Shown here piece after piece: positions 705 to 64,000 of a DNA stretch of 64,000 bases (the stretch's first letter is position 1; the number at the start of each line of letters is the position of its first letter). Position numbers and translations under genes: made by a program. The stretch is from the NCBI GenBank assembly GCA_009760855.2, contig WPIO01000048.1, positions 2,880,001 to 2,944,000 of the forward strand, written 5' to 3'. The DNA comes from Cristatella mucedo (Eukaryota; Bryozoa; Phylactolaemata; Cristatellidae). The notes below the pieces were generated by a model, which was not told where the DNA came from, did not search any database, and saw nothing but the letters and a program-made list of their open reading frames with translations.

Positions 705-3700
705 GTAGGCATGGTGTGCAGGCATGCGGTTTGCAAGAGAGCTAGCTTGCTGATACTTTTACCCAGCGACCCAATGCATAAAAAAGAATTCTAGCGATAT
801 CGTTTGCTGTCGATTTACTGCCTGGTCGACATGCAACAATGGTCGTGATCAACAGCTCGACGATATCTTGATAGGCTTTTTAGAATGAAGGATTGGCAAA
901 AGATATGCTCAACTCTGTGCAGCACTTGCACATTGATTGACGAGAACGATTGGTAAAGCTGCCGATGGCTTTGATAGAATCGCACTTGTCCAATCGTGAC
1001 CATTCAATGTCATATGGTTGCCAAGTCTCATCCAGCAGACCAGCCACCTGTGGATTCCATAATGAGCCTCTCGGAAATGATACTGGCCCATGCTATTGGC
1101 TGTTACTCCTATGCTGACGATACCTAGCCGTTCTTGTCATTTTAACCATCGGAGTAAGCTTCAGCGACTGGCAAACTGAACTTATGCATTGCAGAATTCG
1201 ATCCTGGATCATCGCCAGTTTTCTTAAGCTTAAAGATAAAAAAGAACTCACAGGACAACCTAAACGGCTGGACTAAGAGATTTTGCTCTTCCAATTGGCG
1301 TTGCAATAGTGTGTCCGTCATTGCGCTCATAGCTGATGAGTTCTTTTTGACGACTGCTTGAATTTTAGAAGTTTCATTCGGTAGACCACTTCCATGATTA
1401 GTGTCATGTGTGATCCATGTCCAAGATTAGGGTCTGCTTACCGAAATGGCTGGTTAAATATCTTACTAGAACCCTGATTCTGTCTAGACTGGACTAGTGC
1501 AATTCAGTTTTGGCTAGGCTACCGAAAAGCCATATAGCTGATGTTTGAAATGGCTGTAACGTTGGTCAATAAATCCAAGAGACACTGTGCCTCTTTGCTG
1601 ACCCACAAGACCCGCTAATGCTGGGCTCCTTCATATCTAGCTAAACTGCTGTATCAGTTTCAGCCTTACCGTGCTCTCAGGTCCTCTATGGACAATAAAT
1701 CAGCGGTTCTAATCTTTTGCCTTAAGAATGCTGGAAACAGACGCTTTTGCTTTGAGGGTCCTAGACTGTGGAACTCACTCCCGCAATCTTATACAATGAC
1801 ATCCACTCTCCTGCTGCCAACTGTGGCATATCCTTTCCAGCCGTCCTGATCTGCAACTTACGTGCTAGTCACGACCTCGGCTCCATTCCTGAATCAGCTA
1901 TGCTTCTCACTTTCTCTTTGTTGCTTGAAACGGAGTCTGTTGGCTACCATATGTGCACTGAAAGCCGCTTAGGGTTTGAGTATTCAATTGAATAAATGCT
2001 GACGTCAGACAACACCCTGCTATTCATGCTGCTTAGTTCGAGACTAGCTATCCTAATGATTGCTTTATGGTTTACCCAAACATCACCGAGGCAACGACCA
2101 AAAATTATGGATGCCTTAAACTCCACTTTTTACGAGGTGTCATTACAAATATACAGATTGGGCAACCTACTATTAAAAAATGCACACAAGTGCTGTACAA
2201 ATATTTTCCTCATTAAATTAAAATATCGAGAAATGCCTCGAACATATTTCTGGCCACTGCTACGGAATGGTTTCAAGCTGTGTGTGGGCAGCTGTTCCCA
2301 GAAGCCTTGCCAGCTGCACGTGATTGCATTTTCGAAAACAAGGGCAACTGCAGTGCAAGCCAACTAGCATATTTGTACTCACGAAGGTGCAGCTGACATT
2401 CGGTCGTGCCGTGTCGCGCTTCGGCTCGGTGAGTGGCATGCCTCGCACCGGCTCGGCAGTCACTCTCCGATGCCTTGCAGGCAGGCAGCAAGGCAGTTAG
2501 CATCGACTTCCGCAACTCGGACGGCTTCACGGCTCTGCTGCTCGCGGCGCGTGACGTGTTTCTCTTCGAGAAGCTTGGACCGCAGCTGGTCGCCGCCTAC
2601 AATCCTCGGGCCGTCGTCACCGAGCTGCTGCACCACCGCGCGTAAGCTTGGCTCCCCCATCAGTGCTGCAGCTCCAGTCCCTGCTGCTGTGCCGACTGTC
2701 TGTAGCCGCTGTTCACTGCCGCATCAAAGGTATTCAAACAGAATGTGTCGAGCTGTGGAAACCGAATCGCTTTTACTGCTGCTGCGATCGACCATTTTGC
2801 ACATGCAATCACCTGCACCAATGTATGGCCACCGTCTCTGTGTTTTGTTTCTTATAAAGGACCGTAAGCTTTGTGAGCTGTACTTGCACTCCTGTCTCTG
2901 CACAGCGGTGTGCCGTCGGTCGAGGAGGGGGTTTATTCGCAATCTCTCATTTAGCAACATGTCTGATGAGACAATGTTTAGCTATGCAGGTTGGTAACAA
3001 AAGCGATCAAAGAGATACTCAAGCATGCAGCACAACAAGGTATTTAAAATCCCTCCGATCATTGACCTAGCTGCATTCATTGTCGTCAGTCGCATCCGAT
3101 AATTGCAGCTGTCTATTGTGCCACGAATTGTGCATGTCACATCGATCGATGCCAACACATCGTGTAGACACTATCCTGTATAACTGTGACTGAAGAACTA
3201 GGCTATGCTTTCTCAAGGCCATATTCAGAAGACCGAGTTTGTGTTGTCTGATTGTGTGTGCATACAGCACAAGCTGTTGCCTGCTTAAGCATTACGGGTA
3301 TCCTTATAATCTTAAGAGATGAATCCGAAGATTATTATTCGTTCCTGCTTAGATAAGAGCTTGCATTTGTATGTCTCAGAATTTTGACGAATGGTTGCTA
3401 GTTTTCTTTTGTGATGGTGAAATGATGGGTCTCCATAAACTCCTTAATCCGAAAACTTGGTCTTTGGGTCTTCTTTTTCGGCCTGCTTGCTACTTGCTGC
3501 TAAGTCTAACTAGACAGAGGTTCCACCAACCACATTCAGCCACCCTGGACGATGCTCGTTTTTAAATTCGGGCACGTGAGCAAGGGGTTTTCTGATGTTA
3601 AAACAGTTGTGGCCAGTAGATTTTGTATTTATTTCATGATTTCAGAAAACTTTAAATCTCGAACTCAATTTCGTTCGGAGCTTTATGCCAATCTTATAAT

Positions 3701-25400: not shown

Positions 25401-28400
25401 TTCGAGCTGATTCAACTGGAGATGTGCTGGCAGAGCCAATTTTGAGAGTCAGCCTGTCCAATCTCTGGATCACACTGGGTTTGCCCATAACTAGTAAGTT
25501 AGTTTTATCATCCTAAGTTTTAGAAAATTTGCTGCCATCCATGTGCAGATGTCATCAATGCATGCAGCAAGTGAGTTTAGAGAATATGAGGTGCTCGAAG
25601 GCTGGGAGGGATCAAAGCAAAGGTACAACTGAGTGTCACCCGCATAGAAGTGAAAGCCTAGATTGTGCTTGGCAATCACATCAGCAAGAGGGAGAGTATA
25701 AACCGTGAACAGAACCGGACCTAGCAAGGAGCCCTGAGGTACTCCATATTTCAGAGGTACTTCAGATGATCTTTGTCCATTCACGTCAACACTCTGGAGT
25801 CTCCCACTGAGATAGGACCTGAACCACTGCAGAGCAGTGCCAGTGATGCCCAGGCGAGATGGGAGGCGCTCTAGAAGAACTTTGTGATCGATGGTATCAA
25901 AAGCTGCCGAAAGATCAAGCAAAACAAGCAGAGACACTCTACCCATGTCTGCATTCCTAAGTAGGTCGTTGTATACCCGAAGCAATGCTGACTCTGTGGA
26001 GTGATTAGCTCTAAAGCCAGACTGGAACTTACTAGCAAGGTGTGAGGTTTCGATATATGAGTTCAGCTGGTCTGCCACGACCCGTTCGAGTGTCTTTGAT
26101 AGGAATGGTAGAAGGGAAACTGGGTGGTAGTTGCTCAAGTTCTCTTGGTCTAGTGTAGCTTTCTTGAGAAGTGGCCTGACTACAGCTTTTTTGAAAGGTG
26201 CTGGGACCTGAGGCTAATGACATATTAATGATGTTGGTTATGCATGGCAGCAGCAGATCAATGCAACGTAGGAGCACGACAGTGGGAATAGGGTCCAGTG
26301 GACTTGTTGTCTTCTTTGATTGAGATACGAGCTTTAGGACTACATCACTAGTGACCTGTTTAAATGCAGACATTGAGGCGCAGCCAGGAACCGAGGAACA
26401 GCATTCTAGTGGGGAGATTTTCATCGCAGGGATGGATTCCCTGATCTTGTCTATCTTCTGCACAAAGAATTGAGAGAAGCGATCGGCTAGATCATCATTA
26501 GGATCATCAGGTAAGGAGCTAATCTGGGAACGGTTGAGGAGATGGTTTATTGTCGACATCAGCATTTTTGGATTGTGCATCTGTGATTCAACAATGTTTT
26601 TATAAAAGCTAGACTTGGCCTTTGCTAGGATCGATTGGTACGACCTACAGTAGTCTTCATATGCCTGTCGATGGACAGTTAGTCCGGATCTTTTGTATGC
26701 TTTTTCAAGCTTTCGTTTAGTAGACTTGGCTAGTTTAATGTCTGTGGTAAACCTTAGGCCGTCTGGGCGGGGGCGCACAGTGCGCTTTGTCAGAGGGGCA
26801 AACTCGTCTAGCGTGTCAGCTAGTGTCGTGTTGAAGCTATCTACTAATGATAACAGATCGGAGGGAGGACTGAGCAGCAGAGGTGAAGCAGATATTCTTG
26901 CACGGACAGCATCGAAGTCAAGGGTCTTGAGGTTTCGCGATTCACAGGTTATTTTAGAGAAGGAGGTGGGCACACACTGTAGATTGAATGAGATGTGCAT
27001 GTGGTCAGATAAGCAGGATTTGGTAATAATTGGTGATGACAAAGTGCAGTTGTATGAGAAGATCTGGTCGAGTGTGTGACCCTTGATGTGGGTAGGGCCA
27101 TGCACATGAGCCACAAGAGACAATGAGTCAGTCAATGCACGAAATTCGGTGCTGAAAGCGTCAGATAAGTTATCAAAGTGAACGTTGAAATCACCCATTA
27201 CGAGGAAGGATCGATTTCTTGCACACAGAATCGAAATGAGATCGGAGAAATCTGAGATAAAGGAGGATTTGGTACCTGGTGGGCGATATACTACTGCCAC
27301 TATCGGTAGCTTGTTTTCGGGTGAGACCAAGACAATTGATTCCAAAGACTGCTTCGAGGGTACCGCAAATGGCTTGAAGTTGAATTTCGAGCGCACGACA
27401 ATAGCAACTCCACCTCCAGTTTTGATTGATCTAGGGGTGTGAAAGAACGAGAAACCAGATGGAGTTGTGTCTTTAATTGTCGGACAGTTTATTGATTTCA
27501 GCCAAGTTTCAGTTAGGGCGAGCAGGTCGCTACCATTTTCAGAAGTAAGGTCGCTTATTACTAGAGGTTTATTGCACATTGAGCGAGGATTCCAAAGGCA
27601 AGCGTTAAGTCTGGCCGATGGGGTTACAACAGGCTTGATGACCACTAAGTGGAATTTTAGAATTTTAGTTGAGGAATTTACAGTGACGCATGTGGGGGAG
27701 CATGCTGAGCGGTTCGAGACAATGCTAGGAATACCGAACGAGCGGGTACTCAGCTTGCAGGTTCCGCCCAACGAGCAGCGTCTGAGCTGGCGGTTCCGGC
27801 CACCGGGGTGCTTTTCTTTTGTTAATGCATAGTTCATGAATCTTAGCAACAACATTAATATCTAGGAATGCATTTGATATGCGATGACAAAGCGATAACA
27901 GCTGCTGACGATCATAACTAACAAGCAGGTTACTAGCCGCCGGCAAAGCTAAGGCAGCCGCCGGCGTGGGAGACCCAGCAGCCCGAAGCGATAAGCATTT
28001 AGATGTCCATAGGCACGTAATTTCTTACGTGCTACGGTCAAATAACAATCAGAATAACTTTAAACAGGTCTTAGCTGTATCGTTCTTGCTGCTTATTGAG
28101 CATGTAATGCAATGTATCTTCGTCTGTAACTCCACAAAGCCATAAAGACTATGTGGGTGTTACACTGGAGAGTTTTTTATAGCTCACTCACAGCCTAAGT
28201 GGCTTTCGGTACGCATTCGGTAGCCAACAGACTTTGTCTCACGCAACAAAGAGAAAGTGGGAAGCATAGCAGAGTCTGGAGAGCAGTTGAGATAGTGAGC
28301 AGTATGGAAGTAGCAGCTCAGGACTGCTAAAAAGGAGGAGTCATTGTCGGCAGCAGGAGAGTAGTTGTCGGTGCGTAAGAGATGTGGAAGTGAGTTCCAC

Positions 28401-31400
28401 AGTCTAGGACCTGCAGAGCTAAATCTTCTGTCATCAACGGTCTTTAAGCAGAGGAATGGAACAGCCAATTTATTGTCCACACAGGACCTGAAAGCGCGAA
28501 GAGGCTGAAACTGGTGCAGCAGTTCAGCTAGGTATGGAGGAGCCAAGCCGTGGCGGGCCTTGTGGGTAAGGGTAAGAACTTTGCTCTGTATCCGTTGCTC
28601 AACCGGCATCTATCCTAGCTCTTTTAGCAAAGGAGACACGTGGTCAAACCTCTGCGACTTGAAGACTAGCCTTGCAGCTATATTCAAAGTCAGCTGCAGT
28701 GGCCTAGTTGCTTTCTTTGGTAGCCCAGCCAAAAGGGAATTACAATAATCAAGCCGAGACAGAACTTTGGAGCTAGTAAAATTGTTTGCAAGCCACTGTG
28801 GAAGACAGCTCCTAATCTTGGATAGGGATCAGACGTGATGGCTAGCTGTAGAAGCAGTCTTCTGACTGACGCTTTTAAAATTGAGGCAGCTGTCGGAAAC
28901 GACACCTAAATTTCGAGCACGTGATGATGGTCTCACAACAGCATCACCTATTAGAAGAGCAAAGCCATTTGATCAAGCCACATGCTTAGGGTGTCCTATG
29001 AGCAGCAGTTCGGTTTTATCGTCATTTAGTTTCAAGAAGTTTTCCGACATCCAGGCTCGAATGTTGGCAAGGCAGGCATTCAGTTTATCAGTGGCTGCAG
29101 CAGATACCGACGATTTGAATGACAAATACAGCTGAGTATCGTCCACATACAAGTGATATCCTATTCCATGAGCCTTAATCACTTTTCTCAGATGTTGAGT
29201 ATAAATGGAGAACAGCATGGGACCGAGTGGAGACCCTTGAGGGACTCCACAGGTGACCCGTCTCGTGTGTAAGACCTGACCCCCACACGACACAGATTGA
29301 ACACGATCAGACAAGTACGATTTAACCACCCCAGTGCCGCATCTAGCAGAACGATCGTTGTTCTCAATCGTTCAAGCAGAATATCGTGATCAATGGTGTC
29401 GAAGGCAGCTGGCAGATCTAGCAGAGCTAGGGCAGTGATATTTCTGTCATCGTTGACATGTAGAATGTCATTGTTAACACGGAGGAGCATGCTGCCACTA
29501 ACCATTCGATCGTGCTTCCTTTGCAGCCAAAGGAAAACTGACTAGAAGAGATTGAGTTGTCTGAACATGTACAAAGGAGCAAAAACTCGCATGTTTCTCA
29601 CGATAATGGTTTCATCCATTTTGATGTGCTTCCTTTTCAGCATGTGCAAAGAAGTGGACAGAAAAAGACTTTTTTTTAGCTCTCCAAAGGTGCTATGCAA
29701 ATTACTTATTATTATTATTGCAATTGGGCACCAAACGGCAACAATTACAGTGACTGTGGTCAACGAGCAGAGACAGTATGATCTGTTTGACGTAGCAACA
29801 AGTAATAGTATGCTATAGCTCCCAAAAGGAGGTCAGAAGGCTGTCTAGTGCAACGATATTCTATAAGGAGCACTGAATTGCAAGTAAAGGAGAAATGCAG
29901 GCATATCAGGCACAAGCACATGTGCACACGGTCTAATATTATTGCCACTTTGTGTGCTTTAATAATTGACGTGCCTATCTACCGACAATTAGGCGATGAA
30001 ATTTGAAAAAATGCTACTTTCAATAAGACCAGCCAACAGCAGCTCGTCGGAGTGCTTCTTGTGGTAGATACTTTTGTATTCTTTATTATTTGTGGTTTAA
30101 GGTTAGCTGATTTGACTGCCTCATTTGTATAGCAGCAGAAGAGCAATGACGGCTATCACCACCTCTTGCAGTGGGCAATATAGGATCGCCCACTTCAGTG
30201 GGCAATTCTTTATTGCCCACTGCAAGACGTTGTGCTAGCCGTTACAAACCTAGGTCGTGAAGAGCAAGCATCTTACTTTCTGGGCTTTGGACCCAGGGGT
30301 TTGGATTCTAGTGGGTGTGTGAGATATTGCTGCCTGACAAGTAGCCCATATTTTCACCAGTTTTACCTGCTTCACCTCTCTCTTTCTTTCCCCTTTCTGG
30401 CTACTTCTTTTCCTTCTCATTACACCCGTGTTTTTTATCTTTTTTTATTTTTATATTCTTCTCGCTATTCATTCTTTTCAATCTTACTCACCAAAGGGGA
30501 ATAACAGCAGCTTTGAAAGCTCGGTTGCCGTGGTGACCACGACTGGTCGTGCAAAGCGACTCCGAGGAAGCGGCTGGCTGCCGGCTGCTGGCTATCGTTC
30601 GCACATACGCATCTCGTGACCCGAGATTTTTCTGACACGAGCGATTATTCGGCTACTCTTTGCAGGCGTCGGCTGGCAGCTGGCAACTAAGATGAATATC
30701 ATTGAAGTCGACCCAGAGCATTACCAGTCTCCAGTGCACGTCACTAGCATCCCTGATGCTGGCGCCGTCAGCGCGCGCTCTTTCAGCTTTCACGAGATGT
30801 CGCCGCTGCAAAAGCGCGAGGAGCTGAAGCGTCTGCTTTTGGCCATGCGCGACTCGACGTCAAATTCGGCCCCTGGTGTGGCGGTGACAGCAAATGCGTC
30901 TAGTTTCATTCCGGAAACGATGAGGGCGATACACGAGTTTGCCCAGACCGTCCCAGACCTGGACGAGCAGCACGAATGGGATGCTCTGTTCGGGTTGCAC
31001 GCGAAAGATGCACTGCTCGCTGTACCGAAGTTGGCTGCGGTGGCGCTAGAGGAGCATCGTGCGAGTCATCGTGCGGATGCTGCTGATACGCTTGATCGCC
31101 GACACGGCGGCTTTGCTGCTCCCGATGCAGATGCACTGCAGCCGCGTGAGACGAGGACGCTAGCAGCGCCAGCGCAGCAGCCCGATGCATCGTCACCAGC
31201 TGCAGCGCTCTGGGTAATGCAAGAGGAGAGTGACTTGGCGCAGGCCGAAGGCCCGGATAGCAGTGGCGGCGCCATCGTTGAGCTGCGCCAGCCGCCGGTG
31301 CCGGCTCATCAACCGGATGCACTCTCTGGTGGCTCTGATGGGCTGCGACGCGGTGATGACGGCAGCCTTGTGCGGGATCGACTTCATTCGATGATCATCG

Positions 31401-37139: not shown

Positions 37140-37175
<36 letters not shown>

Positions 37176-40100
37176 CTCTTGCATATTTGCATGTGAGTGC
37201 ATATGTGTGCATGTGTGTCCATGCATGCATGCTCGAGTCTGTTGGTGTGTGTGCATGCACATGCCTATGTTTAGAAAATAATTTTCACTAGACGACCACA
37301 CCAGCTCTACAGTTAAGTCTGTCTACTTTCAGCTATGTAATATTGAAAACGTTTGGGCAGGCTTAGACAGGGATACTGAATCAAAGTGGGTCAGTGCATT
37401 TGCAAAACCCTGTATCAAATTTTTCATGAATTGCCAGATCGAGCAGGCGTTCCGTGAATGGAGATCCAGGAGTGGGCAAACGTAGGCCTATGTAGCTAGG
37501 AGTTTTTCCAGGGAATATCAAACCTGGACCACGAGCCAAGGCCGCTAAGGAGCAGTCTGGGAAGGGGAGGGGGGCCAAAGTCCTCCCTGACTATGGGCCA
37601 AGGGCTGGGGCCAAGGGCTGCCCCAATCAAAGCTGTAGCCTTTGAGCTCTCTGCTCACAGAATTCTCCACCTAGCTCGTCCTGGTGGTAGCCAGATAGCA
37701 CCTTCCAGATGGCTACCAGGCTTAGGCTTCTCGGGAAGGGTTAGCAGACTTTGCAATGACTCCCGAGGCTTGTCGGTCAGCACACCCCGATTTGCGCCTT
37801 CAAGTTGAGCTACAAAGGGAAAGTAGACATTTCAGATAAGGCTGAAAACAAACTGCTCGAATTATGCCTTTGATATGCACGACCAGGATCGATTTTCTGA
37901 GGGTGATACCATTCTTTTAAGGTGGGATCGTATCTATAGTTTCTAAAAATAAAGTAATTCTTGTTAGACAGGTTCAAAGAAGCTTGCCGAATGGTTCTCC
38001 AAAAGTGTACAGCTTTGTTCTTCAAATGGGCATACCAATCTCTCTTAAATGGATGCATGATAAAGAGGCCCCCGGATGGATGGTCCATGGATCTTCAGCC
38101 TCCCAAAATGTGAAGCAACATGCTTTTAAGAGGGGGCTGAAGAGCTGTTTCGGCTGCACACATCCGATGTGCAGAATCCGAGTTCAGGAGTCCAGGAGTG
38201 GTTACCTAATCCTTTTAAAATTAAGAAGCCATCCATATTTATTATGAGGGGGCTGAAGAGGCATGGGTGCAGATGGTGTATGCTTGATGAGAATCTCCAC
38301 GATCAGTGCTGCGGGGGGGGGGGCGGCGGCGCCAGCAGGCCGAGAGAGGAATGCTGAGAAGAGAAGACACATTCTGGGAGGCACTACGTGACTGCTCTAG
38401 TTCCGAGTAGCTATGTTTAGATGGATGCCAAAGGCTTGCAAAACCCACAGGCTTAAGAGTTTTTGTATAGCGATAGCTTCTAATCAGCTGTGTTGACTGC
38501 TTAGCAGAGGCAACCAACAGGGACTAAGTGTTTCCAGCTCCATAGCAAACATAAGTGAGTGTATCGACAGCCAGGTAGACTGTATGCAGAAGCACTGCAG
38601 CATGCATTGGATATAGTGCATATACCTGTGCAACAGCCCTATGGGATGTCGAAGCATGCGTTTAGACTGTGTCTGGTAGGCCTGAGATGCTGACCCCACG
38701 ACATTCGATGCTGGAGTTCAAGGTCGACATCGGCTGCTCTCCAGTTTCGACTGAACACTGGTTATGGGCATAGATAGGCTGGCCTATCGAGCTGGTCGAT
38801 CCCCCAAAATATACCCTTACTGGAGCAACGATCACTCTCTCTCGGATATTCTAGGCTCCCCTCGGACAATCGAAAATTGCACCGTTAGACATCCCCCTCC
38901 CCGCCTGTGAGGATTGTCCTTAGGGGCACTGTTGTCCGGAGATCCTCATATTCTGGGAGGACAAATGTCGGTTAAGGGGACGGCCTGATAAGGGAACAAA
39001 CACTTGCTGCGATGAGAGCAGGGTTGGGCTACACATGCTATATTTTTTGCTTCTGCTGTAGGCATCAAATGTTAAAAATGTCCAACTAAACGAGAGTGGC
39101 AGATGGCTTTCATTGTGGAACTAAGTTGTTAAGTGTCAATAACGACTAGTAAAGATGAAAAGGAGATGCAACATTTTTGGCTCTACGACTGGTATTCTCA
39201 AGGCATCTGTCCGTTTCAGTGACAGCTTGTTTTTCTTTGTAAGGGACATCAAAGGTGCCAACATAATGCTGATGTCAAACGGTGTCATCAAGCTGATCGA
39301 TTTTGGGTGTGCCAAGCGGCTCTGTGTCAACCTAAGTCTCAGTGCCAGCCAGCTACAACGTTCAATGAAGGGCACGCCATACTGGATGGCACCAGAAGTG
39401 GTGAAAGAGACAGGGCACGGCAAGAAGTCAGACATCTGGAGCATTGGCTGCACGGTCTTTGAGATGGCAACGACGCGGCCACCGTGGTGAGTCTGCTGTC
39501 TACAGGCCTCTGTCTTTCAGTCTCGAGTTTGCAGGCCTCGAAGCCAACCGGCCCCATAACTGAGCAAAGTTGCCGCTGCCTTCACGAGCTGCTCCGAACT
39601 TGCTGTGTTTCACTGAAAAAGCTGCAGATGCCAGGACCCGTGCGCTAGGCTCTGCACGAGTAACTCTTACGCGTCAAACAGTTCTTTATGGAGGCTGCCT
39701 TAGTTACCATAATTGTACCAATTGGATACGCAAGCAGCTAGATTGCTAGGCGTCAGGCAGATGCCACACTCTTGGTGTGGACACGCCGGCTTAGCTGCGC
39801 ACTGTTGCGCTCGCACGACGTCGGCTGCCTCTATTTTTCAGGGCAGAGATGCAGCCTATGGCAGCCATATTTGCAATAGGTTCAGACAGGCCTGTGCCAC
39901 AGCTTCCAGACACTTTCAGCAGCCTTGCAAGAGAGTTTGTGAGTGCCTGCATGACACGGTATGTATGTGACCACAGCCATGCTTTAGTAGAGGAATGCAT
40001 TGCCTGACATGGCTAGCCTCTATTGGAGCTGAATTAGTGTGTGCTAACTCTGCAACAGATAAGGGTGCAGGATGTGTGGCTTGGCCGTGCTAAGTGAGAT

Positions 40101-42702
40101 GCTTTAATTGGCTTGCATTTTTTTGATAGCAGCTCAGGCTAGCAGCCACATAGCCGTCTGGTTACAAAGTCTATTGCTTAATGCCCACTGGGTATGCTGC
40201 TCCTCGCGAAACCCTGAGCGACTGACAGACTCGTATTTCAGTACCGAGAGCAGGGTGCATTCCTTCTGGTGATGGGATTTTGTTAGTGTGACATGCAGCT
40301 AATGACTGGTGACACTAGGCCCTAGACTTAGTCTCGAGAATTTTGGAGCATTGCACGCAGGCATAATCGAAAAATGCTGGATTGGGCGAGCCCGAAGATG
40401 ATGAAGCAAGCTGTTAGTCTGCGATAGCAGAGGTTCTGTCGAGATGCAAATGAGATCACTATTTTTTTCTGGCTGTCTGAAACATGAAAGAACAAGAGGG
40501 GAGGAGTGCAGGGGAGCATGTACTCCATGGCATGCAGTCAGTTTCATTCAGAAGACTGCTTCTACAGCTTGCCAGCACGTCCGATCCCTATCTAAGATTA
40601 GGAGCTGTCTTCCGAGGTGGCTTGCAAACAATTTAACTAGCTCCTTAGTTCTGCCTCGGCTTGATTATTGTAATTCACTTTTGGCCGGGCTTTTGAAAAA
40701 AGCAGCTAGGCCACTGCAGATGGCTATGAATATGGCTGCAAGGCTAGTTTGCAAATCCCAGAGGTTTGACCACGTGTCTCCTTTGCTAAAAGAGCAAGGA
40801 TGACTGTCGGTTGAGCAACAGGCACAGAGCAAATTTCTTAACGCTGACCCACAAGGCCAGCCACGGCTTGGCTCCTCCATACCTAGCTGAACTACTGCAC
40901 CAGTTTCAGTCTCCTCGTGCTCTCAGTTCCTGTAAGGATAATAAATTAGCTGTTCCATTCCTTTGCTTAAGGACCGTTGGCGACAGAAGCTTTTGCTCTG
41001 CAGGTCCTAGACTGTGGAACTAGCTTTCACGGTTCTTATGCAACATCAATTACTATCCTGCTGCCGACTATGGCTCATCCTTTCCAGCGGTCCTGAACTG
41101 CTACTTCCATGCTGCTCATTACCTCAACTGCTCTCCTGACTCTGCTATGCTTTCCACTTTCTCTTTGCTGCCGAATGTGTACCGAAAGCCGCTTAGGCTG
41201 TGAGTGCACTATAGAAAACTCTCCCGTGAAACACCCACATAGTCTTTATGACTTTGTGCATTTACAGACGGAGATACACAGCATTGCATTAATATGGCCT
41301 CTGTCATCACCATTCCCAGTGCATCGTTGAAACTACACTTATTGGTGCTCCAAGTCTTTCACGGTGGTCGGATTTTACCAGCGATCAGTTGAATGAATAC
41401 CTATAGTCTAGCTTGACGCCTCCCCCTGTATGTTTGAACTGCATCCAATCTGAGCTAACAAATGCTGTCAGGGTAAAGAGTACATATAGGGACCGTTTGT
41501 TGATGACTAGCACCGGCTGCGTAACATCAAGTCCGAGCAAAAAATTACTAGCTGATTTAACAGCCTCATTTTGTAAAGCGACAGAGGAGCCTCGTAGGCT
41601 ATCACCACAGCTTGCAGTGGCAATAAAGGATCGCCCACGGCACGATTCGAACCAACGACCTCGGAACAGAGATCCGAGGTCGTGAAGAGCAACAGCCTTA
41701 CCTAGTGTGCCATCACGGCTCGCCGAACATTAAACACGGCTCTTCGCAGTGGATCCTCTCTTTGCAATGAATTCTCTCTCCGAGTTGTCGACCACAGTGA
41801 ACGCAATGATGGCACCCGATTGCAATTAAAATCATCCAGTTCAGGCATTGCCCCGATATTCGGTCTGGGCACGTATGTGGTCATGTGCAGACAACGCTTA
41901 AGCCCCGTGTTTAGAGCACGAGATTCGATATCAAAATATTGATATATCAAAATATTTGATATCGGAGTCTCGATATCGAAAGGCTTTGCTGACCACAGGA
42001 CCGTAAAACCAGAGGCTGTGCTATCGTCACTCACCGGACGTGGCAACAATTTTTTAATCTCTGTGCCACGGCCTTCAGTTGTGTTACATTTTCAAATTAC
42101 TCTTAAAAGACGATATTGGCAACCACAGCTCTTAAAAAGCTTATCGCATGCCATTACACTTACTCGTTTGAGGTGTTACTGATATTCGATTGTGGTTAGA
42201 ATCCTTCTTTATTCTCAATATGTATCAATGTTAGCATAACTATATCTTCCCTTCTAATATTGTAGGATGATTCGCCCAAGTAGTGCTTGTAGATCTTCAT
42301 AAAACTCCACTTAAGTTTGTCATCAATCATAGTAAGCTGTTCACTGCTGTGCAGCTCATACTGCCTTTAGAGGCCGAATGGAGAATGAAAGTAGAATTCC
42401 ATAATCGAATGCTGTGCCACACCCCACACTTGACTTCTGTGCGCTCTCTCACTCACTCCTGCACATTAGTGCTTGCAGCACTGCTAACCCTTGGATGGCC
42501 TAAGATATGGCGCTGGCCTACGCCAGAACTGACGTGGCTTTGCACCTTTTGCATGCTCACCCGGCTGCTCGCCACGAGGCTCTGCTGCAGCATGCCGGGG
42601 CCTCATGCCACGTGGTATTGCAGAGATCAGTCCTCGAGGCTCGACGCAGCCGCATTGCTCGCCCATCCGTTCATCATCACGCACACTTCCGTGAAAAAGT
42701 AG
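513..42702 (+). CDS. MAP3K19-like: Ankyrin-repeat MAP3K (MAP3K19/YSK4-like kinase), 5' partial, about 20 exons
   Basis: This is a multi-exon gene encoding a probable MAP kinase kinase kinase. Candidate exons joined in order give one open frame of 1,906 codons plus a TAG stop. Approximate residue layout from 513: ankyrin repeats 1-250; poly-Gln 287-310; Ser/Ala/Pro-rich linker 311-1630 with a basic block near 960-1040; kinase domain 1635-1900. The kinase has the Gly loop (GKGAFATV), the ATP lysine (IAVKQI), an alpha-C Glu (QEEVDLL), [22 protein letters not shown] and the [14 protein letters not shown] segment. The protein ends about 8 residues after the kinase fold. Known for the family: STE11 kinases phosphorylate MAP2Ks. 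The MAP3K19 assignment rests on motif-level resemblance. Vertebrate MAP3K19, as I recall it, has no ankyrin array, so this architecture is unusual. The start codon lies left of the window. Splice sites in the linker between 10.4 and 13.6 kb are the least certain. Confidence 0.85.
705..1584. other. Intron, no recognisable feature
   Basis: AT-rich intronic DNA. I see no coding signal, RNA gene or repeat family here. Confidence 0.5.
1585..1996 (+). mobile_element. LINE-B (CR1-like) 3' fragment
   Basis: Degraded 3' end of the second LINE family. It shares blocks with 40.9-41.2 kb and 59.95-60.2 kb: the 'ctagactgtggaactc' block, 'ctcctgctgcc', and the terminal 'gaaagccgcttagg' region. Frames are broken. 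Confidence 0.8.
2481..2641 (+). CDS. Gene 1 exon B: ankyrin repeat
   Basis: Acceptor TGCCTTGCAG at 2471-2480; donor CGCGC|GTAAGC. It starts in phase 0 and ends with two bases of a codon. It reads [23 protein letters not shown], then an unusually long loop and [10 protein letters not shown]. Exon A ends VVRALL, so A+B gives a normal repeat with no gap. The long insertion between the two helices is atypical for an ankyrin repeat. Confidence 0.85.
2642..4214. other. Intron, nothing assigned
   Basis: 1.57 kb intron with only short chance reading frames. No repeat family recognised. Confidence 0.5.
4215..4327 (+). CDS. Gene 1 exon C: ankyrin repeat
   Basis: Acceptor GGTTGTAG at 4207-4214; donor CTAG|GTAAGG. 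The first base completes GC|G (Ala), giving [22 protein letters not shown], a canonical ankyrin beta-hairpin and TPLH motif. It ends one base into a codon. Confidence 0.85.
4600..5309 (+). mobile_element. Old LINE-A-like copy, interrupted
   Basis: Fragments resembling the LINE-A reverse-transcriptase C-terminus, for example the 'gtctgcctactttcagc' block near 4647 and a 'catcaagcagcgaatcgattt' block near 5023, are heavily mutated. They are split by the opposite-strand LINE-A tail at 4723-4925. Confidence 0.6.
4723..4925 (-). mobile_element. LINE-A 3' end, reverse orientation
   Basis: Begins with the tail (AATAAT)n, followed by the complement of the LINE-A terminal hairpin ('gcgtcctcagagaactcaat') and 3'UTR. 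It is a short 5'-truncated insertion lying inside an older LINE copy. Confidence 0.8.
5310..5460 (+). mobile_element. SINE-1
   Basis: tRNA-like head with box A 'tggtccagtggttaag' and box B-like 'gggctcgagccc'. It is followed by the tail 'agagattaggttctcttggggcgc' (hairpin half-sites AGAGATT and GTTCTCT) and a TA-rich end. Other copies are at about 7.1, 9.1, 47.3, 47.6, 49.1, 49.5, 50.8, 54.5 and 55.9 kb. Confidence 0.8.
5543..5703 (-). mobile_element. SINE-2
   Basis: Second tRNA-like SINE, read on the minus strand. It has a box B-like 'ggattcaaatcc' (complement) and a body 'ggcaataaaggat' related to the copies at 7.7, 30.2, 41.6 and 52.8 kb. It ends with the 'cagctgatt...cagcc' type tail. 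Confidence 0.7.
5815..5958. repeat. Minisatellite, about 4 units of 36-40 bp
   Basis: Tandem units built on 'gatcatcatttctaac' plus 'gtgagccagtgcaga', with increasing divergence to the right. The array stops about 17 bp before the exon D acceptor. Confidence 0.85.
5976..6115 (+). CDS. Gene 1 exon D: ankyrin repeat
   Basis: Acceptor CGTTGTAG; donor TTTCG|GTGAGT. Two leading bases complete G|AG (Glu) from exon C. It reads [20 protein letters not shown] then [22 protein letters not shown]: two successive ankyrin motifs, ending in phase 0. The acceptor sits directly after a minisatellite. Confidence 0.85.
6116..7050. other. Intron, nothing assigned
   Basis: Intron D-E begins here. No repeat family or coding signal recognised before the SINE-1 at 7051. 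Confidence 0.4.
7051..7165 (-). mobile_element. SINE-1, reverse orientation
   Basis: Shows the complement of the shared 3' tail ('cctaatctctattcaggg') followed by 'gggctcgagccc' and 'accgtggtcggg'. The far (box A) end is degraded. It is preceded by a TA-rich tail. Confidence 0.75.
7345..7402. repeat. Short direct duplication
   Basis: A segment containing 'ttaatcatccttcatagaat' occurs twice, about 30 bp apart. Confidence 0.85.
7613..7779 (-). mobile_element. SINE-2, reverse orientation
   Basis: Contains 'gcagcagaagagccttaaag', 'ggcaataaagaatcgcccac', 'ggattcgaaaccacga' (box B complement) and 'tagtgcgccatcacgg' (box A complement). This is one of the better preserved copies. Confidence 0.8.
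7993..8180 (-). mobile_element. LINE-A 3' end, reverse orientation
   Basis: AATAAT-rich tail, then 'gagaacttaatctctttctagg' halves of the terminal hairpin and a degraded 3'UTR. Confidence 0.65.
8181..9004. other. Intron, nothing assigned
   Basis: No recognisable feature in this part of intron D-E. Confidence 0.4.
9005..9146 (-). mobile_element. SINE-1 (longer subtype), reverse orientation
   Basis: Carries the shared tail complement and 'gggctcgagcccacgatctc'. It also has an extra 'aaatacattcactttgac' block before box A, also seen at 47.6, 49.1 and 55.8 kb, which marks a second SINE-1 subtype. Confidence 0.75.
9255..9450 (-). mobile_element. LINE-A 3' end, reverse orientation
   Basis: Tail (TAATAA)n, complement of the terminal hairpin and the 3'UTR including 'gtgacatgccagggtcagca'. 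Resembles the tail of the 24.5 kb copy. Confidence 0.8.
9600..10025 (+). mobile_element. Degraded LINE-A reverse-transcriptase C-terminus
   Basis: Matches the RT C-terminal/3' part of LINE-A ('acttctcaccgacctggactgg', 'aggtcccttcactctctttc', 'cccaaagcctagag', 'ccacatttagaaagaacg') with many frame breaks. It ends about 85 bp before exon E. Confidence 0.75.
10109..10438 (+). CDS. Gene 1 exon E: last ankyrin repeat and polyglutamine tract
   Basis: Acceptor TTTTGCCAG at 10100-10108, phase 0. It completes the repeat from exon D ([22 protein letters not shown], then [17 protein letters not shown]) and runs through a basic helix ([10 protein letters not shown]) into an Ala/Gly stretch and 24 consecutive CAG codons. 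The end is uncertain: GT dinucleotides at 10437, 10439, 10464 and 10467 are possible, with a stop at 10484. I chose 10438 because it keeps phase 0 with exon F. Confidence 0.75.
10361..10432 (+). repeat. (CAG)24 coding trinucleotide repeat
   Basis: 72 bp of uninterrupted CAG in the exon E frame, giving 24 Gln. There is no CAA interruption. Confidence 0.95.
10888..11011 (+). CDS. Gene 1 exon F: Ser/Gly-rich linker (boundaries tentative)
   Basis: Donor GCAGAG|GTGAGA at 11011/11012 is good and leaves one base of a codon, which exon G completes. The start after CCGTGCAG at 10887 is the choice that is phase-compatible with exon E. An alternative start after CTACCAG at 10820 would need a different upstream donor. 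It encodes [17 protein letters not shown] and a basic end. Confidence 0.5.
11400..11700 (+). mobile_element. Degraded LINE-B 3' fragment
   Basis: Contains mutated versions of LINE-B blocks: 'cgtggaacttacttccc', 'ctactaccg', and 'cttcctcgattgccctcctgac', comparable to 41.0-41.15 kb. Confidence 0.55.
12078..12212 (+). CDS. Gene 1 exon G: linker (tentative)
   Basis: Acceptor TTGTGAAG; donor ATTG|GTAGGG. Two leading bases complete the codon left by exon F, and it ends one base into a codon, as exon H requires. It encodes [20 protein letters not shown] then a Ser/Leu-rich stretch. There is no known domain; the support is phase fit, splice sites and composition. Confidence 0.5.
13127..13312 (+). 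CDS. Gene 1 exon H: linker
   Basis: Acceptor GCCGTTGCAG. The frame encodes [20 protein letters not shown] and onward to CDTIIVK. The donor AAAG|GTCAAG is weak, but both this and a second GT at 13319 leave the one-base phase that exon I needs. High third-position GC supports coding. Confidence 0.6.
13425..13520 (+). repeat. G-rich tract, possible G-quadruplex
   Basis: Runs of 3-7 G separated by short spacers (about 13454-13503) followed by a C run, between exons H and I. Confidence 0.6.
13641..13811 (+). CDS. Gene 1 exon I: linker
   Basis: Acceptor CGTGTAACAG; two leading bases complete a Gly codon with exon H. It encodes [20 protein letters not shown] and an acidic EDDDDAS end. The donor TCAA|GTACGC leaves one base, which with exon J forms AGC (Ser). 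A later GCAG|GTGGCA donor at 13837 would put exon J out of frame. Confidence 0.7.
13923..14035 (+). CDS. Gene 1 exon J: linker
   Basis: Acceptor GTCCTTGCAG; donor AATCT|GTAAGC. It encodes [20 protein letters not shown] and [13 protein letters not shown], ending in phase 0. Confidence 0.75.
14040..15435 (-). mobile_element. Old LINE-A-like copy, reverse orientation
   Basis: Starts with an AATAAT tail and hairpin complement and runs through a decayed 3'UTR into RT-coding sequence. Readable pieces on the minus strand include [18 protein letters not shown] near 15.3 kb, which corresponds to the RT 'GVPQGSxLGPxLF' motif. Many stops and frameshifts. It fills intron J-K. Confidence 0.75.
15987..16135 (+). 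repeat. Degenerate tandem repeat, about 28-bp unit
   Basis: Repeats of 'gggctaaatatgcctattagttt' type with variants ('gctagatatgcctactagtt', 'ggactaaatatgcatgcaagtt') five to six times, followed by a poly-C run. Confidence 0.75.
16148..16170. repeat. Poly-C run (23 bp)
   Basis: Uninterrupted C homopolymer about 120 bp upstream of exon K. Its length may be unreliable in an assembly. Confidence 0.9.
16291..17355 (+). CDS. Gene 1 exon K: large low-complexity linker exon
   Basis: Acceptor CTTTTCCTGCCAG; donor AAAACG|GTACGC. It is 355 codons, phase 0 to 0, with no stop. It begins [20 protein letters not shown] and is dominated by Ser, Ala, Gly, Thr and short acidic/basic patches. A short, more ordered patch ([19 protein letters not shown]) lies near 17110-17165. 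Probably disordered and rich in potential Ser/Pro phosphosites. No recognised domain. Confidence 0.8.
17356..18499. other. Intron, nothing firm
   Basis: No repeat family identified except a possible box B-like 'ggttcgactcc' near 17940, too decayed to assign. Confidence 0.4.
18500..18625 (+). mobile_element. SINE-2, degraded
   Basis: Contains 'ggtcttggctttgaaccagtc' (box B region) and a 3' part 'ctaaggctcgactgctgcta' then 'tctggctgtt', comparable to other SINE-2 copies read on plus. Confidence 0.5.
18640..19329. other. AT-rich intron, nothing assigned
   Basis: AT-rich DNA with an oligo-TA patch near 18770-18800. No coding or repeat assignment. Confidence 0.4.
19330..19925 (+). mobile_element. 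Old LINE-A subfamily fragment
   Basis: Reads through the RT catalytic region ([10 protein letters not shown], corresponding to the YADD box, at about 19337) to the C-terminal region, with frame breaks. Much more diverged than the copies that follow. Confidence 0.75.
19920..20947 (+). mobile_element. LINE-A, 5'-truncated, with internal duplication
   Basis: RT C-terminal ORF (about 194 codons from 20002), 3'UTR, terminal hairpin and an (ATT)n tail ending about 20947. A block of about 74 bp at 19920-19993 is repeated at 20140-20213. One frame break near 20565 distinguishes it from the downstream copy. Confidence 0.9.
20948..21677 (+). mobile_element. LINE-A, 5'-truncated, starting in the tail of the previous copy
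   Basis: Begins exactly at the end of the upstream (ATT)n tail and covers the last 160 RT codons ([20 protein letters not shown] onwards), 3'UTR and its own (ATT)n tail at about 21653-21677. It is nearly identical to the 20.2-20.9 kb copy. Confidence 0.9.
21678..22175 (+). mobile_element. Third LINE-A-related 3' fragment (older)
   Basis: Starts at the preceding (ATT)n tail with 'tttaggtcccttaattt' and runs through RT-end blocks to 'agttctcttagggtggtatacacatg' and a degenerate ATT tail. More diverged than its two neighbours. Confidence 0.85.
22453..22954 (+). CDS. Gene 1 exon L: linker with basic Lys/Arg block
   Basis: Donor ATTTCAG|GTAACC leaves one base, completed by exon M to a Gly codon. 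The start at 22453 (after GACGCGAG) is phase 0 and fits exon K. The better-looking acceptor CACTGTCAG at 22444 would need a different upstream phase. It encodes [20 protein letters not shown], then a Lys/Arg-rich run with [22 protein letters not shown] and [13 protein letters not shown]. The composition resembles a nuclear-localisation or nucleic-acid-binding tail. Confidence 0.75.
23015..23158 (+). mobile_element. SINE-2, partial
   Basis: Contains 'aggtcgtcggttcgagtcgtg' (box B region) and the 3' part 'tcttctgccgctatgcaaat' plus 'gtttgatcag'. Lies just after exon L. Confidence 0.6.
23217..23243. repeat. (GTAT)n microsatellite
   Basis: About 27 bp of perfect tetranucleotide repeat. Confidence 0.9.
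23245..24115. repeat. Two diverged direct copies of an unknown element
   Basis: About 23252-23365 and 23985-24110 share an ordered series of blocks: 'ggct(c/t)cacta(c/t)tagagttgcc', 'gatctcggt', 'atggtctg' and 'atttgcaggta'-like. The intervening sequence is unassigned. Confidence 0.6.
24300..24542 (+). mobile_element. LINE-A 3'UTR fragment truncated at its 3' end
   Basis: Plus-strand LINE-A sequence from the RT end ('cccaaagcctggagctcact') through the 3'UTR to 'aaccatgttattc'. There it abuts the tail of the minus-strand LINE-A instead of continuing to its own hairpin. Confidence 0.8.
24543..27960 (-). mobile_element. LINE-A, nearly full-length but inactive copy (endonuclease + reverse transcriptase)
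   Basis: The longest LINE copy, read on minus. The 5' end is near 27.9 kb. An apurinic-endonuclease-like domain (motifs [32 protein letters not shown]) lies at about 27.65-26.9 kb. A linker with a Lys-rich region follows, then the RT, the RT C-terminal region, 3'UTR, hairpin and an (ATT)n tail at 24543-24571. The RT is broken by a frameshift near 26.2 kb at an A-run and another near 25.5 kb, and the catalytic box reads YAGD instead of YADD. RT style and microsatellite tail are CR1/L2-like. No separate ORF1 is recognised upstream. Confidence 0.9.
28100..29485 (-). mobile_element. LINE-B (CR1-like), 5'-truncated
   Basis: On minus: RT fragments [32 protein letters not shown] and an intact catalytic YVDDTQLYL (near 29.13 kb), then [19 protein letters not shown]. 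After breaks, the C-terminal [17 protein letters not shown] and [12 protein letters not shown] follow. The 3' end near 28100 matches the right edge of the window (63.35 kb). Frames are disrupted around 28.65-28.95 and 29.2-29.35 kb. Confidence 0.85.
29486..29720 (+). mobile_element. LINE-A-like 3'UTR/tail fragments
   Basis: Has 'gcatgctgccactaaccattcgatcgtgcttcctttgcagc' style 3'UTR blocks and 'agaagagattgagttgtctg', the hairpin segment, with a second partial tail ending 'ttattattattattg' near 29720. Confidence 0.55.
30108..30300 (-). mobile_element. SINE-2 with internal inverted duplication
   Basis: Minus-strand SINE-2 in which the 'gggcaat...gcccac' segment appears twice in opposite orientation (about 30173-30223), making a short palindrome inside the element. 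Confidence 0.7.
30666..32074 (+). CDS. Gene 1 exon M: largest linker exon
   Basis: Acceptor CTCTTTGCAG; two leading bases complete Gly with exon L. The donor AACCGA|GTAGGT ends in phase 0. The 469-codon body is open throughout. It starts [20 protein letters not shown] and has a charged helical patch ([19 protein letters not shown]). Ser/Ala/Asp-rich sequence follows, with (AAC/AGC) Asn-Ser runs near 31570-31620 and a Pro/Arg-rich end. No known domain. The ATG at 30692 is internal, not the gene start. Confidence 0.85.
32075..35820. other. Long intron M-N with a diverged direct repeat
   Basis: Two copies of an unknown sequence, about 32640-33000 and 33825-34110, share several blocks in order: 'agacatgct(c/g)c', '(a)aaagtttgat/ttttgggatatg', 'gccgct...ctttgc', and 'gatg(c/a)cttcttc'. 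The rest is unassigned, with a small (ACTAGT)n array at 34859-34880. Confidence 0.5.
35821..35946 (+). CDS. Gene 1 exon N: linker
   Basis: Acceptor TTTTTTTTCTAG; donor AGTCGC|GTACGT. It is 42 codons, phase 0 to 0, reading [20 protein letters not shown], then [18 protein letters not shown]. Confidence 0.8.
36059..36241 (+). CDS. Gene 1 exon O: start of kinase domain (Gly loop)
   Basis: Acceptor TATTTTCTCAAG; donor GCCACG|GTGAGT, phase 0 to 0. After an Arg/Ser-rich stretch ([17 protein letters not shown]) it reads [17 protein letters not shown]: the GxGxF of the ATP-binding loop, with V supplied by exon P. Confidence 0.9.
36491..36642 (+). CDS. Gene 1 exon P: kinase subdomains I-III
   Basis: Acceptor GGGTTGCAG; donor GTCGG|GTATGG, ending two bases into a Gly codon. 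It reads [20 protein letters not shown] with the ATP-anchoring Lys in IAVK, then [20 protein letters not shown] with the alpha-C Glu. Confidence 0.92.
36755..36934 (+). CDS. Gene 1 exon Q: kinase hinge to catalytic loop
   Basis: Acceptor CTCTTTAAG; one leading base completes Gly. It reads [40 protein letters not shown] and [12 protein letters not shown]. It ends two bases into the Arg of HRD (donor ACAG|GTGAAT). Confidence 0.92.
37142..37173. repeat. (GT)n microsatellite
   Basis: About 16 GT units in intron Q-R, followed by degenerate GT/TGCA-rich sequence to about 37260. Confidence 0.9.
37283..37402 (+). mobile_element. LINE-A fragment
   Basis: Short piece of the RT C-terminal region ('ctagacgaccacaccagctc', 'gtctactttcagctatgtaa', 'gcttagacagggatact'). 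Confidence 0.75.
37403..39243. other. Intron Q-R remainder, possible unknown repeat
   Basis: No family assigned. The stretch 37600-37800 and 61090-61300 share loosely ordered blocks ('aatcaaagctgtagc', 'agcctgg/ggtagcc', 'gactcccgaggcttgtcgg' against 'gactcgtcgg'), suggesting a diverged repeat. A poly-G run sits at about 38310-38322. Confidence 0.35.
39244..39486 (+). CDS. Gene 1 exon R: kinase catalytic and activation segments
   Basis: Acceptor TTCTTTGTAAG; the first base completes the HRD Arg. It reads [20 protein letters not shown] with DFG, then [29 protein letters not shown] and [20 protein letters not shown]. All catalytic residues (HRD, DFG, APE) are intact. The donor CCGTG|GTGAGT splits a Trp codon. 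Confidence 0.95.
39842..39958 (+). CDS. Gene 1 exon S: kinase C-lobe
   Basis: Acceptor CTATTTTTCAG; the first base completes Trp. It reads [20 protein letters not shown] and [13 protein letters not shown], as in MAP3K C-lobes. The donor ACACG|GTATGT splits an Arg codon. Confidence 0.92.
39959..40554. other. Intron S-T, nothing assigned
   Basis: No recognisable feature before the LINE-B copy. Confidence 0.4.
40555..41290 (+). mobile_element. LINE-B, 5'-truncated, plus orientation
   Basis: RT C-terminal region ([31 protein letters not shown], then [17 protein letters not shown] and GPRLWN) with two frame breaks, followed by the family 3'UTR to 'acagacggagataca'. Confidence 0.85.
41548..41735 (-). 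mobile_element. SINE-2, reverse orientation
   Basis: A well preserved copy: 'gcgacagaggagcct', 'ggcaataaaggatcgcccac', 'cacgattcgaaccaacga' (box B complement), a local 'cctcggaac...gatccgagg' stem, and 'tagtgtgccatcacggc' (box A complement). Confidence 0.85.
41926..41985. repeat. AT-rich palindromic segment
   Basis: Repeated 'gatatc' and 'caaaatatt' motifs in both orientations form an imperfect inverted repeat. Confidence 0.6.
42624..42702 (+). CDS. Gene 1 last exon T: kinase end and stop
   Basis: Acceptor GTATTGCAG. The first base completes Arg, then [17 protein letters not shown] (the subdomain XI pattern), a short THTSVKK tail and TAG at 42700-42702. Confidence 0.9.
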
Positions 42703-45030: not shown

Positions 45031-59368
<14,338 letters not shown>

Positions 59369-59759
59369 CTGTTGACAAGAGATGAGGTAGTGGGGTAGAA
59401 GGCGTTTTGCTTCAGCCAACGAGACGATGCGAGTAGCAGAGCCAAGCAGCAGACAAGCGATCGTAGTGCAAAGGTCGGTGACGCTGTCGGTAGGTAGAGC
59501 ATACATAGCAGCTAGAGGCAGAGGAACATGCAGCCACTCTAGTGCTCAATTATCACGATCGTCTGACTAGGTGCAATAGCTTGAGACACTTCTAACCCAG
59601 AGGCAGTGGGCCAGAAATAATGAAGAATTTATGGGAAGAATGTCGTTGTGCTCAAGGGCACAGGCAGACATTTATCACATGTACACAATCCACAAGTGCT
59701 GAGTCCAAACATACATCCAAGTCAGCACTACAACTAGCAATCCTAGCATTGATCTAGCA

Positions 59760-59946
59760 CGGTGGTTCTCAAACTTCCTAATGCCGCGACCCTGTAATAC
59801 AACTCCTCACTGTGTGGCGATCCCCAACCATAAAATTATTGTGTGAAAAATGTAGAAATGCGTGTTTTTCGATGGTCTTAGGCAACCCACATGAGAGGGT
59901 CGTTCGACCCCCAAAGGGGTCGCGACCCACAGGTTGAGAACCACTG
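59760..59946 (-). mobile_element. Non-autonomous hAT element, SPIN-like
   Basis: 187 bp with terminal inverted repeats. The right end reads (minus) CAGTGGTTCTCAACCTGTGG then GTCGCGACCCCTTTGGGGG; the left end reads CGGTGGTTCTCAAAC then TTCCTAATGCCGCGACCC. An internal 'cgatggtcttagg' segment is also present. As I recall them, these match the SPIN/OposCharlie hAT group. Flanking 8-mers atctagca and tcttagac resemble the group's NTCTAGAN target, but have diverged. No transposase is encoded. Confidence 0.85.
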
Positions 59947-60240
59947 TCTTAGACTGCGGAACTCGCTTCCACGATTCTTACGCAACGACAACTACTCTCC
60001 TGCTGCCGACTGTGGCTCATCCTTTCCAGCGGTCCTGAGCTGCTACTTTCATGCTACTCACTACCTCAACTGCTCTACTGACTCTGCTATGCTTTCCACT
60101 TTCTCTTTGTTGCATGAGATGAAGTATGTTGGCTACCGAATGCACACCGAAAGCTGTTTAGGCTGTGAGTTCGCTATACAAAACTCTCCTGCGTAACACC
60201 CACATAGTCTTTTTGGCAATGTGGAGTTACAGACGGAGAT
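59947..60240 (+). mobile_element. LINE-B 3' end
   Basis: Begins at the hAT edge with 'tcttagactgcggaactcgc' and runs to 'acagacggagatac', the family 3' terminus. Confidence 0.85.
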
Positions 60241-60284
60241 ACAACCCATGGACATGCCACCCGACTTGAAAATGCTGCCATATG

Positions 60285-63354: not shown

Positions 63355-64000
63355 TGTATGTATAAATGTATCTCCGTCTGTAACCCCAAAAAGCTACAAA
63401 GACTGTGTGGGTGTTAAGCAGGAGAGTTTTGCATGGCTCACTCACAGCCTAAGCGGCTTTCGGTACGCATTCGGTAGCCGACCGACTCTATCTCATGAAA
63501 CAAAGAGAAAGTGAGAGTCATAGCTGAGCCAGGAGAGCTGTTGAGGTAGTGAGCAGCATGGAAGTAGCAGCTCAAGACTGCTGGAGAGGATGTGCCATAG
63601 TCGGCAGCAGGAGATTAGTTGTCGTTGCATAAGTATTGTGGAAGTGAGTTCCACAGTCTAGGACCTGCAGAACAAAAGCTTCTGTCGCCAAAGGTCTTTA
63701 AGCAGAGGAATGGAATAGCTAATTTATTGTTCATACAGGACCTGAGGGCATGAGGAGGCTGAAACTGGTGCAGCAGTTCAGCTAGGTATGAAAGCCAAGC
63801 CGTGACGGGCCTTGTGGGTCACCATACGAACTTTGCTCAGTATCGGTTGATCAACCGGCAACCATCCAAGCTCTTTCAGCAAAGGAGACACACGGTCAAA
63901 CCTCTGGGATTTGTAAACTAGCTTTGCAGCCATATTCATCACCAGCTGCAGTAGCCTAGTGGCTTTTTTGGTAGCTCTGCCAAAAGGGAATGCCAATAAT
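63355..64000 (-). mobile_element. LINE-B, reverse orientation, cut by window edge
   Basis: 3' end near 63360 ('tatctccgtctgtaacccc'), the family 3'UTR, then RT C-terminal sequence on minus (LLQLVMNMAAKLVYKSQRFD, KARHGLA). Collinear with the 28.1 kb copy. Confidence 0.85.

What the first reader, a model, noticed from the sequence alone, without database searches (positions are those of the whole stretch)
59760..59946. SPIN-like hAT MITE in an invertebrate genome: candidate horizontal transfer
The right 45-50 bp (TIR plus GTCGCGACCCC...GGGGGTCG) and the left TIR plus CCTAATGCCGCGACCC look like the SPIN/OposCharlie non-autonomous hAT elements. That group is a textbook case of horizontal transfer among tetrapods and some invertebrates. 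It abuts a LINE-B fragment whose edge ('tcttagac') corresponds to the LINE-B block 'tcctagac', which fits the NTCTAGAN target preference. Finding it in a LINE/SINE-rich non-vertebrate genome would extend the host range. The resemblance is from memory, not from a search.
Basis: partly seen in the sequence, partly recalled or inferred. Interest (0 to 1): 0.75.

Follow-up and report, generated by a model that had tools for sequence, protein, structure and literature searches.

The report
SPIN jumping-gene remnants in an invertebrate
A 187-base dead jumping gene that looks nearly the same as the SPIN family known from mammals, reptiles and a blood-feeding bug sits in over a thousand copies in an invertebrate genome, best explained by DNA passing between very distant animals.

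Summary
Window 59760-59946 is a 187-bp hAT MITE. The 572-Mb genome holding the window has 1,281 left ends with up to 3 mismatches (backwards control 0). Target duplications are 8 bp, nnnTAnnn, as in the Buster/SPIN group.

SPIN identity rests on my memory of the rodent sequence; no Repbase or Dfam was at hand. A recalled 90-nt internal stretch, absent from the window and queried before any call had shown it, gave 40 hits at 85-92%. Recalled ends match the genome consensus at 165 of 166 positions.

The mitochondrial contig reads by code 5, with a lophotrochozoan-like gene order. Nuclear contig C166 carries both a mitochondrial insertion and SPIN copies, so contamination is unlikely. Horizontal transfer is the best explanation. 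Species, donor and autonomous partner were not found.

The window copy is not a clean insertion into LINE-B. Its left half-site (ATCTAGCA) matches that of a SPIN insertion 122 kb away; its right one (TCTTAGAC) lies in LINE-B. It looks like a mosaic of two insertions. The 40 best-scored copies are 94-96% identical to the consensus, suggesting an extinct burst.

The parts
59760..59946 (+). SPIN_NA-type hAT MITE, 187 bp, non-coding, 18 of 187 positions differ from the family consensus
59760..59775 (+). left terminal inverted repeat CGGTGGTTCTCAAACT (family consensus CAGTGGTTCTCAACCT)
59931..59946 (-). right terminal inverted repeat, read inward CAGTGGTTCTCAACCT (family consensus CAGCGGTTCTCAACCT)
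59752..59759 (+). left half-site ATCTAGCA; the same octamer flanks both sides of another SPIN copy at C430:3062105, 122 kb away
59947..59954 (+). right half-site TCTTAGAC, the first bases of the LINE-B fragment (TCCTAGAC in 4 of 4 other LINE-B copies of the window)
59674..59759 (+). left flank, 86 bp, 91% identical to one other place in the genome search (C430:3062019-3062104), where it also abuts a SPIN copy
59947..60243 (+). LINE-B fragment, 297 bp, beginning at the right half-site; its upstream part is missing here
28113..28409 (-). LINE-B copy with the site uninterrupted (TCCTAGAC)
63367..63663 (-). LINE-B copy with the site uninterrupted
41005..41278 (+). LINE-B copy with the site uninterrupted
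1759..1981 (+). LINE-B copy with the site uninterrupted

Best explanation
The element is a non-autonomous member of the SPIN lineage (hAT superfamily, Buster group) in the genome of a non-vertebrate animal, probably a lophotrochozoan. Inferred mechanism: an autonomous SPIN entered this lineage by horizontal transfer, its transposase moved internally deleted derivatives (187, about 316-330 and about 550-640 bp) by cut and paste into nnnTAnnn sites with 8-bp duplications, and activity then ceased. Shown here: family structure, copy number, target duplications, several size classes, native residence. Inferred: transfer, transposition in trans, extinction. The window copy is a dead passenger whose two edges come from two different insertions, most simply by ectopic exchange between SPIN copies.
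For: 187-bp consensus with 16-bp TIRs CAGYGGTTCTCAACCT. Octamer flanks agree at 6 or more of 8 in 33 of 41 copies against 6.9% of mispaired flanks; the T and A at octamer positions 4 and 5 stand in 34-39 and 36-37 of 41; Buster group contains SPIN and TcBuster's TSD is nnnTAnnn (PMC3499496, passages). 1,281 left ends, backwards control 0. Recalled internal SPIN_NA 90-mer, typed at unanswered before any call had shown such sequence, gave 40 scored hits of 107 candidates, 85-92%; longer copies carry both SPIN ends around it. Recalled ends match consensus at 165 of 166 positions and side with it at 16 of 16 sites where the window copy deviates. Recalled OC1 end: 0 matches. Host: mt contig with 11 in-frame TGA in COX1, AGR=Ser, ATA=Met, AAA=Lys by conserved positions, lophotrochozoan-like order; nuclear contig C166 has a 96-97% mt insertion and SPIN copies. 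Mosaic: L117 has the window's left flank, perfect ATCTAGCA duplication, and a body that differs from the window's at 33 of 172 sites with 0 shared derived sites.
Against: No vertebrate SPIN sequence could be obtained: scans of viral contigs, genome contigs, phages, plasmids, E. coli genomes and paper texts all found nothing, so the SPIN label and the identity figure rest on recall. The recalled ends were written into a search only after the consensus was computed, so the calls do not prove that the recall came first. No autonomous SPIN was found: 30 of 138 PF05699 loci and 20 of 150 Buster-like loci held carried no SPIN end, though both loci sets are partial. Host phylum and species unidentified; the mollusc haemocyanin search found nothing but its control rang nowhere. 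The 41 copies behind the consensus were chosen by likeness to the window copy.
Confidence: 0.86

Rival explanations
1. A local Buster-group MITE that only shares TIR and subterminal motifs with SPIN and descended vertically in this lineage.
For: The genome is rich in other hATs, among them Buster-type elements with different TIRs; Buster elements are known to share about 106 bp of terminal similarity (PMC4298943, passages); no vertebrate reference was at hand.
Against: The recalled inner stretch, outside the termini, was found by search before it had been seen; ends match recall at 165 of 166. Non-coding sequence does not stay that alike over protostome-vertebrate time.
Confidence: 0.09
2. Vertebrate contamination of the assembly.
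Against: 1,281 left ends; the 40 further copies lie on 28 other contigs, the fetched ones 0.1-24.8 Mb long; the copies sit in host repeats; C166 carries a mitochondrial insertion of the non-vertebrate mt type and SPIN copies.
Confidence: 0.01
3. For the window copy only: a simple insertion into LINE-B whose left target duplication and left LINE part were later lost by deletion or mutation.
For: The right edge starts exactly at a LINE-B octamer of the right kind; 7 of the other 40 copies also lack agreement at 6 or more of 8.
Against: The left half-site ATCTAGCA is not random: the same flank abuts another SPIN copy with a perfect ATCTAGCA duplication 122 kb away, and the left TIR is intact.
Confidence: 0.2

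Closest known systems
SPIN_NA (Space Invaders non-autonomous hAT elements; rodent form recalled as URR1/SPIN_NA)
   Same: TIR CAGYGGTTCTCAACCT, subterminal GTCGCGACCC and GGTCGTTCGACC motifs, inner stretch, 8-bp nnnTAnnn target duplications, several internally deleted size classes; comparison sequence is recalled, not fetched
   Different: 187-bp form has a shorter inner part than the recalled rodent form; host is a protostome; no autonomous partner found
TcBuster and Buster1/Buster2 (hAT, Buster group)
   Same: 8-bp nnnTAnnn duplications (PMC3499496, passages); subterminal TGGGTCGCG repeats reported for Buster1 (PMC4298943, passages)
   Different: Buster1 TIR CAGGGCTTCTTAAAC and Buster2 CAGGGGTGGCCAACCT (same passages) differ from CAGYGGTTCTCAACCT
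OposCharlie1 (OC1)
   Same: hAT family also known from Rhodnius and tetrapods (PMC11614815, PMC3621081, passages)
   Different: recalled OC1 end pattern: 0 matches with up to 3 mismatches in this genome

Membership tests
hAT superfamily | 8-bp target-site duplication and short TIRs beginning CA | tested here: met
   33 of 41 copies agree at 6 or more of 8; consensus ends CAGTGG...CGCTG; not met by the window copy itself (3 of 8)
Buster group (with SPIN) | nnnTAnnn target preference | tested here: met
   octamer position 4 is T in 34 (left) and 39 (right) of 41, position 5 is A in 36 and 37 of 41; rule from PMC3499496 passages
SPIN | near full-length nucleotide identity to the SPIN_NA consensus | tested here: inconclusive
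   only a recalled consensus was at hand: 165 of 166 end positions, inner 90-mer 85-92% in 40 scored hits
SPIN | autonomous relative with SPIN transposase and the same ends | tested here: inconclusive
   none among the loci held; longest copies seen are non-coding, about 550-640 bp; searches capped
SPIN | horizontal transfer: identity far above that of host genes, patchy distribution in relatives | not testable with these tools
   no vertebrate or invertebrate relatives' genomes are searchable here
OposCharlie1 | OC1 subterminal sequence | tested here: not met
   recalled pattern, 0 matches; a wrong recall would also give 0

The most novel reading that the evidence does not exclude
SPIN invaded a lophotrochozoan phylum from which it has never been reported, reaching more than a thousand copies, so that this lineage is a further node, perhaps a go-between, in the chain of transfers among tetrapods, a triatomine bug and aquatic invertebrates.
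Probability: 0.55. Interest if true: 0.7.

Novelty: new member of a known kind. Interest (0 to 1): 0.58.

Why it matters
SPIN is one of the best-known cases of transposons crossing between phyla, but the invertebrate side of its route is thin: among papers seen here only Rhodnius is named (PMC11614815, PMC5791352, passages). A high-copy, multi-size SPIN population in a protostome with a long-read-like assembly would let the transfer be dated and its direction tested. The mosaic window copy also shows such invaders serving as sites of later rearrangement.

Tried and rejected
Vertebrate SPIN copies were sought in public collections by exact patterns, by distant blastn and in paper texts: nothing in any. 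Gilbert 2010 and Gilbert 2012 are not held. Host naming by genome and mitochondrial size in papers gave no match; the 18S search did not complete. Mollusc haemocyanin: 0 matches, control rang nowhere, so no conclusion. Autonomous partner: an Ac-type hAT (63 of 138 matches at 69 bits or more, my count; 30 loci, no SPIN end in the stretches held), a Buster-type hAT with TIR CAGGGGTGTCCAAC (20 loci, no SPIN end) and one flank of a third group with CAGGGGTCGGCAACC (L116) were looked at and rejected as partners; walking inward from the longest copy gave 13 matches and one further non-coding copy (L115). A simple insertion into LINE-B was considered and put second.

Full report
What is there. Window 59760-59946 is 187 bp with TIRs of 16 bp, no reading frame of note, and G+C-rich subterminal motifs. 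The own genome is G000, 572,011,866 bp in 688 contigs, the window being C430:2880001-2944000. That search had 2135 first-look candidates, scored 40 and listed 41 places: the window itself and 40 others on 28 other contigs (my count), 77-90% identical to the window copy. I fetched these with flanks (contigs 0.1-24.8 Mb).

Family structure. The 40 copies and the window copy give a 187-bp consensus; mean identity to it is 93.7%, the window copy 90.4%. These copies were picked by likeness to the window copy, so this is not an unbiased divergence. A search with the consensus scored 40 of 2336 candidates: 40 listed rows are 94-96% identical and one more 85%. No listed copy exceeds 96%, which suggests one past burst and no recent activity, though only scored copies were seen. 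The left-end pattern with up to 3 mismatches occurs 645 times forward and 636 reverse, 0 times read backwards.

Target sites. Flanking octamers agree at 8, 7 and 6 of 8 positions in 10, 15 and 8 of 41 copies; 8 of 41, the window copy among them, agree at 5 or fewer. Mispaired flanks reach 6 or more in 6.9%. Positions 4 and 5 are T and A in 34 and 36 of 41 left octamers and 39 and 37 of 41 right ones. TcBuster is reported to give 8-bp duplications nnnTAnnn, and its Buster group is said to hold SPIN (PMC3499496, passages).

Is it SPIN? No curated SPIN sequence could be obtained here (the two Gilbert papers are not held). I used recall. The strongest test: a recalled 90-nt inner stretch, most of it absent from the window element (its first 18 nt overlap it), was typed (not completed), before any call had shown it; it gave 40 scored hits of 107 candidates at 85-92%. 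The fetched longer copies carry SPIN ends around it: both ends in L048, L052-L055, one end or partial ends in L049-L051. A further 74-nt stretch, typed after one search had shown such sequence, matched 8 of 9 loci (not L052), its reversal none; it is weaker evidence. Recalled ends agree with the consensus at 165 of 166 positions and with the window copy at 149 of 166; at 16 of 16 sites where the window copy departs from the consensus, recall has the consensus base. I recalled these ends before by my own account; the first call that holds them is note 40, after it. A recalled OC1 end pattern gave 0 matches.

Host. COX1 is on contig C688 (21,008 bp), E 2.1e-132, with 11 in-frame TGA. Read by table 5, conserved COX1 and cytochrome b positions make sense with AGR as Ser, ATA as Met and AAA as Lys (by eye). 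Gene names other than COX1 and the large rRNA are my reading of translations. The order nad1-nad6-cob-Ser-nad4L-nad4-His-nad5-Phe on one strand, and cox3-Lys-Ala-Asn and cox1-Ile-nad3 (ARAGORN calls are noisy), recall the chiton-like lophotrochozoan order (from memory). A vertebrate is excluded by the code. A mitochondrial insertion on nuclear contig C166 is 96-97% identical to C688, and C166 also carries SPIN, so nuclear and mitochondrial DNA belong together. Phylum and species stay open; mollusc haemocyanin gave 0 matches with a silent control. SPIN in Rhodnius is in print (PMC11614815, passages); mammalian hosts are listed as galago, murine rodents, opossum, tenrec and vespertilionid bats (PMC5857283, passages); 385 copies in the painted turtle (PMC4054807, passages). 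SPIN in Lymnaea is recalled only: it is not named in the passages I saw. Searches for other reports showed none for a lophotrochozoan in their listings, which were capped.

Partner. PF05699 gave 138 matches of 150 scored. Its main group, 63 rows at 69 bits or more, is a young Ac-type hAT (98-99.9% identical to L070 in the main pieces of the 29 other loci; PDB relatives are Hermes). A recalled Buster-type query gave 150 matches; the 20 loci held are a 2.7-kb family with TIR CAGGGGTGTCCAAC. Neither set carries SPIN ends in the stretches held.

The window copy. The right flank is the 3' part of a LINE whose other four window copies continue upstream past TCCTAGAC; here that upstream part is missing and the left flank has no LINE match. 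The left flank (59674-59759) occurs once more in the search, 91% over 86 bp at C430:3062019-3062104. There it runs into another SPIN copy with perfect ATCTAGCA on both sides. The two bodies differ at 33 of 172 positions and share no derived base, while their flanks differ by about 9%. So the left edge belongs to an ATCTAGCA insertion, the right edge to an insertion in LINE-B, and the body does not descend from the body now at C430:3062105. Ectopic exchange or repair between SPIN copies is the simplest reading; it is inferred.

Mechanism and status. Shown: a native, multicopy, multi-size hAT family with Buster-type target sites. Inferred: arrival by horizontal transfer, mobilisation in trans by a SPIN transposase, extinction. 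No function for the host is suggested.

Verdict. Known kind of element; the host is the news, if it proves unreported.

Noticed in passing
L065-L094 (own genome): A very young Ac-type hAT family: 63 of 138 PF05699 matches at 69 bits or more (my count), main pieces of 29 loci 98-99.9% identical to L070, open frames up to about 640 aa in several copies.
   Followed up: partly
L095-L114 (own genome): A 2.7-kb Buster-type hAT family with TIR CAGGGGTGTCCAAC, about 94-96% identical between copies.
   Followed up: partly
L062, L064, L063 (contig C688): A 21-kb mitochondrial contig, 44% G+C, with two identical 2,119-bp direct repeats and a further inverted copy of up to 1,795 bp of them.
   Followed up: partly
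L057 (contig C166): A nuclear mitochondrial insertion of at least 3.7 kb, 96-97% identical to C688.
   Followed up: yes
window 24784-27861: A fairly complete LINE with endonuclease and reverse transcriptase domains on the minus strand.
   Followed up: no
window 58939-59511 and 36000-40000: Exons of a GDA1/CD39 nucleoside phosphatase (E 1.4e-8) and of a MAP3K-like protein kinase (Pkinase 2.1e-24).
   Followed up: no
L027 and L028: Two SPIN copies on different contigs share the same 14 bases of right flank, as if nested in another repeat.
   Followed up: no
L032 (C676:2827836-2828708): Two SPIN copies in opposite orientation within about 0.5 kb.
   Followed up: no
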